In this document: one piece after another, positions 7,484 through 62,640 of the stretch
Layout of the letters: each line of letters opens with the position of its first letter
Position numbering within the stretch: the first letter of the stretch is position 1
From: Erythrobacteraceae bacterium E2-1 Yellow Sea
GTDB lineage: Bacteria > Pseudomonadota > Alphaproteobacteria > Sphingomonadales > Sphingomonadaceae
Direction of reading: 5' to 3'
Assembly: GCA_014983025.1 (NCBI GenBank)
Contig: JADCLP010000002.1
Coordinates: 1-64,000, forward strand
DNA length: 64,000 nt
Position numbers and translations under genes: made by a program
Notes under the pieces: generated by a model
Database searches by the model: none
Seen by the model: the letters and a program-made list of their open reading frames with translations, nothing else
Told to the model about the DNA's origin: nothing

Positions 7484-7774
7484 ATGGCGTCACTCGCCAG
7501 CCTTGAAAGAAACGCCCGCCCTCAGCTGCAATGCCGTTATCGCTCGGGGATGCGGCTCGAGCTCAATATATTGGAGGTTTCGGCGGGCGGCTGCATGGTT
7601 GAATCGCTGGGGTGGTCCGTCAGGCCAGACGAAGACATATCCATCAAGCTTCCCGGGCTTGGCTATCAGCCCGCCACGGTGGTGTGGATTGAAGATGGGC
7701 GCGCAGGCGTGGCCTTTGAAGAGCCGCTTTATGGCCCGATGCTGGAGCATATTGAACGGCTGCTAGCGGCCTGA
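7484..7774 (+). CDS. Small PilZ domain protein
   Basis: A 96-residue stand-alone PilZ domain: LELNILEVSAGGCMVES is the strand after the c-di-GMP switch, and PATVVWIEDGRAGVAFEEPL the closing strands. The canonical [D/N]xSxxG is here ExSxxG (EVSAGG), and the leading arginine motif is irregular (RNARPQLQCRYR), so c-di-GMP binding is uncertain. A GGAG precedes the start by about eleven bases. It is monocistronic and converges with the hydrolase gene 12 bp away. Such single-domain PilZ proteins are numerous in sphingomonads and mostly unassigned. Confidence 0.82.
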   Translation: MASLASLERNARPQLQCRYRSGMRLELNILEVSAGGCMVESLGWSVRPDEDISIKLPGLGYQPATVVWIEDGRAGVAFEEPLYGPMLEHIERLLAA

Positions 7775-10779: not shown

Positions 10780-11739
10780 TTAAGCCCTGCGCCCCTTGGT
10801 CAAATAAGCTGGCCACATCTCAAAAAGTTCAGCCCTTGCCCCACCTGCAGCATTAGCCAGGATCAGTGCACGCTCAGCCCGGTTGAGCGTTTGCTGTTGT
10901 GTCCCGTGCAAGCTGGCAAGGCCTGCACTTGCAGAAATAGGCAGGCTGCCCGCACTGGAATTTTGGGATAATTCCGCAAAGGTTGCGATGATCTCTCGCA
11001 CGCGTGCCAGGGCATCTTCTGGATCATTCCCCGGCATCAGCATGGCAAAGCGGGGGCCGTCCAGGCGGGCAACCAGCTCTCTTTCGTGTCGCACCACCCC
11101 GATAAAGTCCGCAAAGGCACGGATCATCGCTTCGCCCGAACTTTGCCCCAGCCGGAGGCATAATGCGCGAAAGGCATCAATTTCGAACAGTGCCACTGCG
11201 CCCTTGCTATCAGTTCCCAGATATTCGGAAATGGTTTGAACAAAGGCGCGGTGGTTGGCGATTCCTGTAAGTTGATCGGTCAGATCATCGCATGACCAAT
11301 ATTGATCGACAGCTTGGCGTGGCTCTATCGCCCGCAACAGGCCCAAAGCACCCCCCTTCCCATTATCAGCAACGGGTATGGGTCGCAGCCTCAACGCGAA
11401 CCAACGGCGGGAATAGCGCTGGCCTTGCGCAGCGCTGCCATCATTTAATTTCTCTGCCACAGATCGTGGAAGCGCGAATTCTATTCGGTCCCGCTCTGCA
11501 CACCCATTGCATGCCTCAAGGAAATAGGCTCGTACCGCAGCATTATGTGCCCTGTCAGCCAGATCGGCGATATGTGGAGCGATCAATAGTGCAGAAATAT
11601 CCACGCCGAGATCGTGCAGGTCTGGCGATGCATGTTCGATAAAGCCGTCAGCGTCAGTCTTAAGGATGATATCACCGGCAATCTCTGCCAGCATTCCATA
11701 CAATGCAGACCCGTCATTGACGGAAAACCACGGATTCAT
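10780..11739 (-). CDS. Degenerate GGDEF domain protein with N-terminal PAS-like region
   Basis: A 319-residue protein. Residues about 1-140 look like a PAS sensor (ALYGMLAEIAGDIILKTDADGFIEHASPDL). The C-terminal half is a GGDEF domain by pattern (DDLTDQLTGIANHRAFVQTI, then LVARLDGPRFAMLMPG), but the active-site motif is LDGPRF in place of GGDEF, and the metal-binding DLDxFKxxND is FEIDAFRALC. It should not make c-di-GMP and more likely senses or binds a ligand or partner. It lies directly downstream of a PilZ-HTH gene on the same strand, across an AT-rich region with palindromes, which suggests a shared signalling function. Confidence 0.85.
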   Translation of the reverse strand: MNPWFSVNDGSALYGMLAEIAGDIILKTDADGFIEHASPDLHDLGVDISALLIAPHIADLADRAHNAAVRAYFLEACNGCAERDRIEFALPRSVAEKLNDGSAAQGQRYSRRWFALRLRPIPVADNGKGGALGLLRAIEPRQAVDQYWSCDDLTDQLTGIANHRAFVQTISEYLGTDSKGAVALFEIDAFRALCLRLGQSSGEAMIRAFADFIGVVRHERELVARLDGPRFAMLMPGNDPEDALARVREIIATFAELSQNSSAGSLPISASAGLASLHGTQQQTLNRAERALILANAAGGARAELFEMWPAYLTKGRRA

Positions 11740-11794
11740 CGTCGCTTGCCCCCGACGTTTCGACCCAAAAGTCGACCCGCCATCAGTCAAGTCC

Positions 11795-11909
11795 AATATT
11801 GTTAGCTAACGATTACAGAGATATTTATCAAATTTCTCTTATATCTCTTTATAAATTACAATATCTGTTAGCTTAGTAATATAACTTAACTAAATATCGA
11901 ATCGATATT
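11795..11909. promoter_or_regulatory. AT-rich intergenic control region with direct repeats and palindromes
   Basis: The 237 bp between the GGDEF and PilZ-HTH genes are strikingly AT-rich against their surroundings. They contain the direct repeats AATATTGTTAGCTAA (11,795-11,809) and AATATCTGTTAGCTTA (11,860-11,875), the perfect palindrome GTTAGCTAAC (11,801-11,810) and a 17-bp inverted repeat AATATCG-AAT-CGATATT (11,893-11,909). They lie 55-170 bp upstream of the GGDEF start and so probably contain its promoter and operators. Confidence 0.6.
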
Positions 11910-11976
11910 GTATTTTGTTTACCATATATCGGAATAAATGAAGCGGTAATATCATCACTGATGACGGCTTTACGCT

Positions 11977-12648
11977 TTACAGCTCAATCATAATCCTGAC
12001 TTTTTCAGGGGAAATCCCATAGGCGCGTGCGATTTCATTGCGGCTGGTTTTTATGATCTCCTCCCCCTCTTTTTGGGTCGAGTGGGTTGTGAGCTCGGTT
12101 ACATCCACGCCAAGCGCCTGGGCGATAGCAGGCAGCCGATCCTCCACAGGCCGCGCCTTGCCCTTTTCCCACGCCCAGACAGTGGGCTTGCTGACCCCTA
12201 GCTCACTCGCCACGTCAGCAAGAGTGAGGCTGCGGCTTTTGCGCAATTGTTCGATGCGCTTACCCAATCCTTCTGCTGCGGGCTTGAAGCTGGGCGAAGC
12301 TACCTCAAAATGATTGGGCAATGCTGCATCGCTGCGCAATTGTGCCGCACTCAGCACAGCGGAAGAGATTGGCGATTCAAACTCGCAACCGTAAAATCTA
12401 TCGTTTACCCAAACTATCCGTGCCGGGATCAAGGGGGCTTCGGGCAGGTTGACCAGCAATGCCTCGCCTTGGGTCAGCACCAGATCGGTTTCGATCAACA
12501 TGCCGCTGGTAGATGCATTGTGAATCAAGACAGCTGATGCCGCATCCCCCGGTCGCGCTCCACTCGTTGCCAAGCTCAGCTGATGGCGTGTGTGACGCCG
12601 GTCATCAGACCCCTCGGTTACTGAATCCAGATAAGCCCTGACAGACAT
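11977..12648 (-). CDS. PilZ-XRE fusion: candidate c-di-GMP-responsive transcription factor
   Basis: A 223-residue two-domain protein. Residues about 15-110 are a PilZ domain with both c-di-GMP motifs: RRHTRHQL (RxxxR) and NASTSGMLIE (NxSxxG). Residues about 128-185 are an XRE/Cro helix-turn-helix (IEQLRKSRSLTLADVASELGVSKPTVWAWEKGKARPV). A tail of about 30 residues (SRNEIARAYGISPEKVRIMIEL) looks like a second small helical element. AAGGGAG lies eight bases before the start. The obvious reading is a repressor or activator whose DNA binding depends on c-di-GMP; the targets are unknown. The neighbouring AT-rich palindromes and GGDEF gene are natural candidates. Confidence 0.9.
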   Translation of the reverse strand: MSVRAYLDSVTEGSDDRRHTRHQLSLATSGARPGDAASAVLIHNASTSGMLIETDLVLTQGEALLVNLPEAPLIPARIVWVNDRFYGCEFESPISSAVLSAAQLRSDAALPNHFEVASPSFKPAAEGLGKRIEQLRKSRSLTLADVASELGVSKPTVWAWEKGKARPVEDRLPAIAQALGVDVTELTTHSTQKEGEEIIKTSRNEIARAYGISPEKVRIMIEL

Positions 12649-12771
12649 GAGTGCGACTCCCTTGCAATAGGCAAGAGGTCGCTCCCGAAAGTTAAGTTTT
12701 GGTTAGCAAACAGCCGCTTGTGCGGCGCGTCGTTACTGATCGCATGATAGGCCGAACGACCCTTGAAAACC

Positions 12772-32000: not shown

Positions 32001-32029
32001 CATATAGGAATACGACCACCACCTGTCAA
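32001..32029 (-). promoter_or_regulatory. Strong promoter of rpoB-rpoC
   Basis: On the minus strand TTGACA (32,024-32,029) and TATATG (32,001-32,006) are separated by 17 bases. It implies a transcript start near 31,994 and a leader of about 240 nt before the rpoB ATG. The leader contains a GCACC/GGTGC hairpin near 31,876-31,894 and a GAGGT/ACCTC pair close to the start codon; otherwise no recognised riboregulator. Confidence 0.75.
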
Positions 32030-32086
32030 ACACGCAGGCACCGGGAATCCTACTTTCTGATTATCAATTAGCTATATATTGTTTTT

Positions 32087-32140
32087 CGATATTATCGATT
32101 GACAATAAACCGAATCGCCCTTATTGAATATCAATATTGA
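32087..32140. promoter_or_regulatory. Palindromic operator-like sites upstream of the DUF2975-HTH module
   Basis: The AT-rich stretch contains CGATA-T-TATCG (32,087-32,097) and the perfect palindrome TCAATATTGA (32,131-32,140). A -10-like TATATATT lies just left of them. They are placed as operators for the small HTH protein encoded downstream, and recall the CGATAT palindrome at 11,893-11,909. Confidence 0.55.
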
Positions 32141-32159
32141 GATTATAGGAGATCGATAA

Positions 32160-32288
32160 ATTTCTCAGATTTTGAACCATTCCGTAGCCGCGATTGCGGC
32201 AATCCTGCTTACCGCTGGGTCTTTGACCGCAATTGTCACCATCCCACCCGTACAGGCCAATGTGATCCACGCACCCATCGTCGCCTGA
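32160..32288 (+). CDS. Possible 42-residue exported peptide with ATT or TTG start
   Basis: An open frame with a strong Shine-Dalgarno AGGAG (32,147-32,151) exactly eight bases before an ATT at 32,160. The frame has a TAA just in front, so translation must begin at ATT 32,160 or at TTG 32,172, which is too far from the AGGAG. The product reads NHSVAAIAAILLTAGSLTAI and then VTIPPVQANVIHAPIVA, that is, a signal-peptide-like helix followed by a VQA-type cleavage site and a tiny tail. DUF2975 follows 29 bp later. I recall similar small secreted-looking peptides near such modules but cannot name a family. Confidence 0.45.
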   Translation: MSQILNHSVAAIAAILLTAGSLTAIVTIPPVQANVIHAPIVA

Positions 32289-61858: not shown

Positions 61859-61944
61859 TTTCGTTGAGATCTTGTGTGGTTAATTCAAGTCAACCTCTCT
61901 TATCGAGCGGTTACCGCAAGGTTAGGGGCAAAAGGGGAATACCC

Positions 61945-62640
61945 ATGCGTGTGCTTTTGATTGAGGACGAGCCAACAACCGCGAAAGCGATTGAACTCAT
62001 GCTCACCACTGAAGGCTTTAACGTCTATTCGACCGATCTGGGCGAAGAAGGTCTCGATCTGGGTAAGCTGTATGATTACGATATCATCCTGCTTGACCTG
62101 AATCTGCCAGATATGCACGGTTATGACGTGCTGAAGAAACTGCGTGTCGCCAAGGTGCAGACACCGGTTTTGATCCTTTCGGGCATTTCCGAAATGGACA
62201 GCAAGATCCGCAGCTTTGGCTTTGGCGCTGACGATTACGTGACCAAACCGTTCCATCGTGAAGAACTGGTCGCCCGTATTCACGCTGTTGTTCGCCGCTC
62301 TAAGGGCCACAGCCAGTCAGTAATCCGCACAGGCAAGCTGGCCGTGAACCTCGATGCCAAAACTGTTGAAGTCGATGGCGCCCGCGTTCACCTGACGGGC
62401 AAGGAATATGCGATGCTTGAGCTGCTTTCGCTGCGCAAGGGCACCACGCTGACCAAGGAAATGTTCCTGAACCACCTTTATGGCGGTATGGACGAGCCCG
62501 AACTCAAGATCATCGACGTGTTCATCTGCAAGCTGCGCAAGAAATTGAGCCTGGCCTGCGGTGGCGACAATTACATCGAAACCGTCTGGGGGCGCGGCTA
62601 TGTGCTGCGCGATGCAGACGAAGCTGCCGAAGCAGCTTAA
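61945..62640 (+). CDS. ctrA: Cell-cycle response regulator CtrA
   Basis: A 231-residue OmpR-type response regulator. The receiver domain has [20 protein letters not shown], the phospho-acceptor Asp in [11 protein letters not shown] and Lys in DDYVTKPFH. The DNA-binding domain is almost invariant in the order ([20 protein letters not shown] and [15 protein letters not shown]). ATG 61,945 follows an AGGGG. The C-terminus AAEAA ends in two alanines, as required for ClpXP degradation of CtrA in Caulobacter. Controls cell division, flagella or similar traits. Confidence 0.98.

What the first reader, a model, noticed from the sequence alone, without database searches (positions are those of the whole stretch)
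11977..12648. PilZ domain fused to an XRE helix-turn-helix: a candidate c-di-GMP-gated transcription factor
Both c-di-GMP motifs (RRHTR and NASTSG) are intact, and an XRE domain follows in the same protein. Most known c-di-GMP transcription factors use other folds, so this build is a simple, testable ligand-to-DNA switch. The next gene is a GGDEF protein without a working active site, and an AT-rich palindromic region lies between them.
Basis: partly seen in the sequence, partly recalled or inferred. Interest (0 to 1): 0.75.

Follow-up and report, generated by a model that had tools for sequence, protein, structure and literature searches.

The report
Cell-cycle-linked c-di-GMP gene switch
One bacterial protein joins a predicted sensor of the messenger c-di-GMP to a DNA-binding domain; in related bacteria its gene usually sits next to a look-alike of a c-di-GMP-making enzyme that lacks the catalytic motif, with a strongly conserved stretch of DNA between the two, so the pair is likely a gene switch tied to the cell cycle.

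Summary
ORF 11977-12648 (-) is a 223-aa PilZ-XRE fusion with both PilZ ligand motifs. The next gene is a PAS-like plus GGDEF protein without the catalytic motif. A 27% GC region with inverted repeats lies between them and is the most AT-rich stretch of the window. In 78 of 80 related loci the same partner follows on the same strand. In 199 family genomes, 23 of 25 with a strong fusion match also have a strong partner match. The intergenic region carries a box T[G/A]GT[A/T]A followed within 30 bp by the CcrM methylation motif GANTC in 77 of 79 loci and 12 of 15 others. The fusion gene's own promoter carries a CtrA-type box, YTAA-N7-TTAA, in 27 of 81 and 10 of 15, specific to that spacing. The genome encodes CtrA, CcrM-like and GcrA-like proteins and seven GGDEF proteins with an intact motif. 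I read it as a c-di-GMP-responsive regulator wired into the CtrA/GcrA/CcrM cell-cycle circuit. Ligand binding, DNA binding and the operator are inferred, not shown. New variant of a known kind.

The parts
11977..12648 (-). PilZ-XRE fusion gene, 223 aa: PilZ about residues 16-97, XRE 128-186, long helix 183-210 and conserved C-terminal tail
10780..11796 (-). Partner gene: PAS-like domain plus GGDEF fold with DGPRF instead of GG[DE]EF; likely start is the ATG at 11739
   Evidence: start by alignment (M20 column kept in 79 of 79)
11797..11976 (.). AT-rich intergenic control region (27.2% GC), downstream of the fusion gene and upstream of the partner
11890..11924 (-). Conserved core TGGTAAA-N14-GATTCG-N4-TTAG
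   Evidence: once in the own genome
11899..11903 (-). GATTC, a GANTC CcrM methylation motif inside CGATTCG (fits YGAKTCG)
   Evidence: methylation itself not tested
11804..11873 (.). Inverted arms AGCTAAC (11804-11810) and GTTAGCT (11867-11873), 56 bp apart; candidate operator pair
   Evidence: CTAAC-N55..58-GTTAG in 39 of 79 loci, shuffle mean 0.07
12691..12706 (-). CTAACCAAAACTTAAC, CtrA-type box (CTAA-N7-TTAAC) in the fusion gene's promoter
61864..62640 (+). ctrA gene (ORF coordinates; the CtrA profile starts at residue 28)
   Evidence: NF045991, 422.6 bits against a cut-off of 350; found through

Best explanation
The gene encodes a PilZ-XRE fusion that likely acts as a transcription factor switched by c-di-GMP, and its likely local target is the AT-rich region in front of its conserved partner gene, which encodes a GGDEF-like protein without the catalytic motif. 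Inferred steps: CtrA would time expression of the fusion gene through the CTAA-N7-TTAAC box. c-di-GMP made by other GGDEF proteins would bind the intact PilZ motifs and change how the XRE domain, presumably as a dimer, sits on DNA. The conserved GANTC site would make the partner promoter sensitive to CcrM methylation and GcrA, so that the partner is made at a set time of the cell cycle. The partner, predicted inactive as a cyclase, would feed back on the regulator or on c-di-GMP signalling by protein contact. Shown directly: the domain build, the motifs, the gene pairing and co-occurrence, the conserved intergenic region, the two promoter signatures, and a CtrA gene with CcrM-like and GcrA-like genes in the same genome.
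For: Ligand residues R17, R21, N44, S46 and G49 kept in 79 to 81 of 81. Fold matches to c-di-GMP-bound PilZ domains and to XRE repressors. Partner on the same strand in 78 of 80 loci and 19 of 37 more; co-occurrence 23 of 25. Intergenic box plus GANTC in 77 of 79 (shuffle mean 2.7) and 12 of 15 (0.41), GATTC changing to GAATC in 5 of the 12; 0 of 203 regions upstream of four neighbouring genes. Inverted arms 55-58 bp apart in 39 of 79, shuffle mean 0.07. CtrA box specific to N7 spacing. All 19 paired proteins keep SKPT[VI]WAWE, while 14 of 18 unpaired ones do not. Seven other GGDEF proteins with an intact motif.
Against: No binding or expression data. The GANTC block may be read by GcrA alone. 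A pattern search for further sites in the own genome gave no excess over the reversed control. TTAA-N7-TTAA in its textbook form is in 0 of 81 promoters and the strict YTAA form in only 27 of 81; YGAKTCG is in 6 of the 15 more distant loci. GcrA and CcrM score below their curated cut-offs. Four unpaired proteins keep the recognition helix, L035 and L061 lack the box in the 79-set, and L120, L129 and L136 lack it in the 15-set. Two strong-fusion genomes lack the partner. Relatedness of the sequences is not corrected for.
Confidence: 0.55

Rival explanations
1. The intergenic region is only a GcrA/CcrM-controlled promoter of the partner gene; the fusion protein may respond to c-di-GMP but acts on other genes.
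For: GANTC is the best kept feature, and GcrA binds such promoters in a methylation-dependent way in Caulobacter (PMC3667746, passages). A GcrA-like gene is present.
Against: The inverted CTAAC/GTTAG arms at fixed distance and the TGGTAAA box are not explained by GcrA; the recognition helix is constant in paired and mostly different in unpaired proteins.
Confidence: 0.27
2. The PilZ domain does not gate DNA binding; it serves for pairing or docking with the GGDEF-like partner, and the XRE part binds DNA constitutively.
For: Tight co-occurrence with the partner. PilZ plus tail without XRE, and XRE plus tail without PilZ, exist, so the parts can work apart.
Against: The residues kept in 79 to 81 of 81 proteins are the ligand residues themselves.
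Confidence: 0.13
3. The intergenic block is a structured RNA leader, small RNA or short reading frame.
For: It is conserved and outside the called genes; ATGGTAAAC could open a very short frame.
Against: RNAalifold gives 0 pairs on 51 sequences; the two Rfam matches are far below gathering scores; the frame is not kept, because the spacing varies from 18 to 20 and several other genera lack the ATG.
Confidence: 0.05

Closest known systems
MrkH (Klebsiella), PilZ-containing c-di-GMP transcription factor
   Different: MrkH pairs PilZ with a novel, non-HTH DNA-binding domain; here the DNA-binding part is a C-terminal XRE domain, and no MrkH chain was among the listed sequence or fold matches.
BldD (Streptomyces), XRE-type c-di-GMP transcription factor
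   Same: XRE helix-turn-helix DNA-binding domain and response to c-di-GMP (PMC4151990, passages).
   Different: BldD has no PilZ and binds tetrameric c-di-GMP through a C-terminal domain of its own; here the sensor is an N-terminal PilZ domain.
CtrA- and GcrA/CcrM-controlled promoters of Alphaproteobacteria
   Same: CtrA layout TTAA-N7-TTAA (PMC9437464, passages) and GANTC in YGAKTCG context (PMC7987155, passages; PMC3667746, passages).
   Different: The first CtrA half-site is consistently a variant; neither promoter has been tested; a PilZ-XRE regulator was not named as a target in the passages I read.
mPilZ-1753 of Erythrobacter flavus 21-3
   Same: c-di-GMP signalling through a PilZ protein in the same group of bacteria (PMC10267684, part 1 of 2; PMC12172448, passages).
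   Different: mPilZ-1753 has 123 aa and acts by protein contact with TsdA; no DNA-binding domain is described in what I read.

Membership tests
PilZ c-di-GMP receptor | RxxxR and [D/N]xSxxG motifs | tested here: met
   R17/R21 in 79 and 80 of 81, N44, S46 and G49 in 81 of 81; motif definition in PMC10333796, passages
PilZ c-di-GMP receptor | PilZ fold and profile match | tested here: met
   PF07238 31.1 bits over the cut-off of 22.5 with the N half alone; Foldseek to Alg44, MapZ and BcsA
PilZ c-di-GMP receptor | Binds c-di-GMP | not testable with these tools
   needs purified protein
XRE-type transcription factor | XRE/Cro helix-turn-helix | tested here: met
   HTH_31, HTH_3 and HTH_19 over cut-off; DdrO, P22 c2 and SinR folds
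XRE-type transcription factor | Specific DNA binding | not testable with these tools
   candidate operators only
Active diguanylate cyclase (partner gene) | GG[DE]EF motif with catalytic Glu | tested here: not met
   no GGDEF or GGEEF in any of 79 partner ORFs; Arg at the catalytic Glu in 74 of 79
Degenerate GGDEF c-di-GMP receptor (partner gene) | I-site RxxD | tested here: not met
   the aligned positions, placed by recalled PleD layout, are H237 and E240 in the window and are not conserved
MrkH | PilZ joined to a non-HTH DNA-binding domain | tested here: not met
   the DNA-binding part is XRE; definition from PMC12564702, passages
BldD | XRE plus C-terminal domain that binds tetrameric c-di-GMP | not tested
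   the C-terminal tail of about 40 aa has no Pfam domain over cut-off and was not compared with BldD
CtrA-controlled gene | TTAA-N7-TTAA type box upstream | tested here: inconclusive
   variant YTAA-N7-TTAA in 27 of 81 and 10 of 15, other spacings at most 3; textbook form 0 of 81; CtrA gene present
GcrA/CcrM-controlled gene (partner gene) | GANTC in extended YGAKTCG context upstream of the gene | tested here: met
   79 of 79 within 330 nt but 6 of 15 in the more distant set; GANTC near the box in 77 of 79 and 12 of 15
GcrA/CcrM-controlled gene (partner gene) | Methylated in the cell and bound by GcrA | not testable with these tools
   needs methylome and ChIP

The most novel reading that the evidence does not exclude
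A two-input epigenetic switch: a c-di-GMP-bound PilZ-XRE dimer reads an operator built around a CcrM methylation site, so that second-messenger level and replication-dependent DNA methylation jointly set when a pseudo-cyclase partner is made, closing a loop with CtrA. It would found a class of PilZ-HTH transcription factors that can be predicted from sequence and would link GANTC methylation directly to c-di-GMP output.
Probability: 0.2. Interest if true: 0.85.

Novelty: new variant of a known kind. Interest (0 to 1): 0.63.

Why it matters
The 2014 BldD paper says that transcription factors sensing c-di-GMP lack the common binding motifs and so must be identified experimentally (PMC4151990, passages). 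A conserved PilZ-XRE family would be one that can be found by sequence. [quoted passage not shown] The conserved GANTC in front of the GGDEF-like gene makes a close form of that question directly testable in named Erythrobacter strains that are among the loci.

Tried and rejected
RNA reading of the intergenic block: Rfam and consensus folding of 51 sequences gave no support. Micro-ORF from ATGGTAAAC: the frame is not kept. CtrA sites inside the intergenic region: YTAA-N7-TTAA is in 0 of 79 and 0 of 15 there. Further sites in the own genome: the core pattern with up to 3 mismatches gave 132 forward and 119 reverse matches against 161 and 148 for the reversed control, and only one exact match. 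The extra gene between GGDEF and NMO in several relatives looks like purT (recognised from recall; the six loci looked at are); unrelated.

Cautions on counts. Alignment A2 holds 51 of the 70 loci that contain GGTAAA followed by [CT]GATTCG, thinned by me, so those columns are invariant by selection; the unselected figures are 70 of 79 exact and 77 of 79 loose. The 15-locus set is 15 of the 19 paired loci; L114, L115, L116 and L118 were dropped as repeats or near relatives of the 79-set, and L117 shares its genus with L116. The thresholds 1e-65 (fusion) and 1e-60 (partner) for the co-occurrence count were chosen after seeing the lists; of the 23 genomes with both, in G070 the two lie on different contigs and in G080 on opposite strands. 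Of the places listed, 37 were fetched for synteny and six regions for half-length matches. Shuffles keep local base composition only and no test corrects for ancestry. The upstream regions of the neighbouring genes used as controls overlap coding sequence in part, so they are a weak control.

Searches of papers that returned no report of this fusion that I could recognise from the listings. The Cai 2023 paper (PMC10267690), which according to PMC10267684 tested ten PilZ proteins of Erythrobacter flavus 21-3, is not held, so I cannot say whether a member of this family was among them. All papers were seen as passages, except PMC10267684, of which part 1 of 2 was read.

It corrected the rank of the AT-rich region, removed a claim that the region is better conserved than coding sequence, and added a control for the inverted arms.

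Full report
OBSERVATION. ORF 11977-12648 (-) encodes 223 residues. Its N half matches PilZ with E 3e-7 when scanned alone. In the scan of the whole protein PilZ is not among the 25 families shown of 40, and a genome-wide PilZ search at E <= 0.001 did not list the gene. Of the 120 homologs listed (1419 found), 108 by my count carry a precomputed PilZ domain. The XRE domain spans residues 128-186. The AlphaFold2 model (58 sequences, mean pLDDT 82.5, pTM 0.46) has a PilZ barrel, a low-confidence linker, the XRE helices and a long helix 183-210. Foldseek finds c-di-GMP-bound PilZ domains of Alg44 and MapZ and XRE repressors such as DdrO. The placement of the domains relative to each other is not determined.

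CONSERVATION OF THE PROTEIN. A scan of genome contigs kept 80 of 86 relatives, mostly named Erythrobacter, Altererythrobacter, Porphyrobacter or Pelagerythrobacter, at 36-52% identity to the window protein. In the 81 proteins (80 plus the window) H43, N44, S46 and G49 are in all, R21 in 80 and R17 in 79. In the recognition helix S153, K154, P155, W158, A159, W160 and E161 are in all 81. The C-terminal tail (R203, I206, A207, then a VRIMIEL-like end) is also strongly kept.

THE PAIR. In 78 of 80 loci a degenerate GGDEF gene follows on the same strand; L086 (Sphingopyxis) has none and L050 ends at the contig edge. Aspartokinase is matched in 75 of 80 loci. Of 37 further loci from the window's family, 19 have the same arrangement; in 12 of these 19 no aspartokinase match lies in the 7-8 kb fetched, so the pair stays together where the surroundings differ. 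In 199 family genomes, fusion matches at E <= 1e-20 occur in 42 genomes and 23 of 96 genera, some only half-length. At stricter cut-offs 25 genomes have the fusion and 26 the partner; 23 have both, two only the fusion (G061, G093), and three only a partner match, all of one genus and inside frames of 633-635 aa. In 385 genomes of the class no match outside the family covered both halves; the four outside matches covered the XRE half, one of them with the tail.

THE PARTNER. It has a PAS-like domain joined to a GGDEF fold; the best Foldseek match is the PAS-GGDEF-EAL protein PA0861. None of 79 partner ORFs contains GGDEF or GGEEF; the usual motif is DGERF, and Arg stands at the catalytic Glu in 74 of 79. 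The I-site positions, placed by recalled PleD layout, are not conserved. The seven other GGDEF genes of the genome all show GG[DE]EF, so the cell likely makes c-di-GMP without the partner. Many weaker partner matches in other genomes lie in frames of about 585-770 aa, which suggests that the partner descends from a longer GGDEF protein, perhaps of the PAS-GGDEF-EAL type; this is inference.

THE CONTROL REGION. The 13 most AT-rich of 6382 sliding 180-nt stretches of the window all overlap the space between the genes. GGTAAA followed by [CT]GATTCG occurs in 70 of 79 loci, with start-to-start spacing of 19 (61), 18 (8) or 20 (1). With the looser box T[G/A]GT[A/T]A followed by GANTC within 30 bases it is 77 of 79 (shuffle mean 2.7; missing in L035 and L061) and 12 of 15 in the more distant set (shuffle mean 0.41; missing in L120, L129 and L136). 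Five of those 12 have GAATC where the others have GATTC: the methylation motif is kept while its centre changes. None of 71, 53, 8 and 71 regions upstream of lysC, NMO, purU and ubiG has the combination. In the 199-genome sample the strict core pattern occurs once in each of the four genus genomes, beside the fusion gene, and in no other; in other paired genera the core is altered. Inverted arms CTAAC-N55..58-GTTAG are in 39 of 79 loci, shuffle mean 0.07, and at 56 bp in the window. No RNA structure is supported.

THE FUSION GENE'S OWN PROMOTER. CTAACCAAAACTTAAC at 12691-12706 fits the CtrA layout with seven bases between the halves. YTAA-N7-TTAA is in 27 of 81 and 10 of 15, and any other spacing from 2 to 14 gives at most 3. 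It is in 0 of 79, 72, 53, 8 and 71 regions upstream of the partner, lysC, NMO, purU and ubiG. The textbook TTAA-N7-TTAA is in 0 of 81, so the first half-site is a variant. CtrA is encoded in the window at 61864-62640 (+), 422.6 bits over a cut-off of 350. CcrM and GcrA are the best NCBIfam matches of their genes but lie below the curated cut-offs: 596 against 830 and 132 against 280.

RECOGNITION HELIX AND PAIRING. All 19 paired proteins keep SKPT[VI]WAWE. Of 18 unpaired ones 14 have another helix and four keep it: L123, L125 (contig end), L126 (partner on the other strand) and L128. This is expected if the paired group shares a DNA target, though it also follows descent. PilZ plus tail without XRE (L170, L171) and XRE plus tail without PilZ (L167, L168, L169) occur, so PilZ, XRE and tail look like exchangeable modules.

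READING. Most likely a c-di-GMP-responsive transcription factor, timed by CtrA, acting at the promoter of its pseudo-cyclase partner, a promoter that also carries a CcrM/GcrA-type mark. In Caulobacter GcrA binds GANTC promoters in a methylation-dependent way (PMC3667746, passages), and activation was proposed for those with YGAKTCG, a motif extension that was not seen in Brevundimonas (PMC7987155, passages). Sphingomonadales keep the CckA-ChpT-CtrA relay (PMC2877005, passages). c-di-GMP and PilZ signalling is active in Erythrobacter flavus 21-3 through a different, 123-aa PilZ protein. Every binding step is inferred.

LIMITS. There are no binding, expression or regulon data. Counts are not corrected for shared ancestry. 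The intergenic element could belong to GcrA alone.

Noticed in passing
7484-7774 (+): A stand-alone PilZ protein of 96 aa (29.9 bits) in which no RxxxR...[DN]xSxxG pattern was found (L003); it reads EVSAGG at the second motif, so it may not bind c-di-GMP.
   Followed up: partly
61864-62640 (+): The ctrA gene lies in the same 64-kb window as the CtrA-type box of the fusion gene.
   Followed up: partly
L167-L171: The C-terminal tail occurs with PilZ but no XRE (L170, L171) and with XRE but no PilZ (L167-L169), as if it were a module of its own; it has no Pfam match over cut-off.
   Followed up: partly
L010:5887-7068 and L057:6065-7240: A purT-like gene (named from recall) lies between the partner gene and NMO in these relatives but not in the window.
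   Followed up: no
L031, L042 and similar loci, intergenic block: One clade has GGAGGTGATT, a Shine-Dalgarno-like string (recalled), at the GATTC site without a start codon at a usual distance.
   Followed up: no
just upstream of the partner start, alignment A2: A G-rich string such as GCCGGGGGCA is kept next to the partner's start in many of the 51 rows.
   Followed up: no
32001-32220: A second AT-rich dip, 35.0% GC from 32001 and 37.8% at 32041-32220.
   Followed up: no
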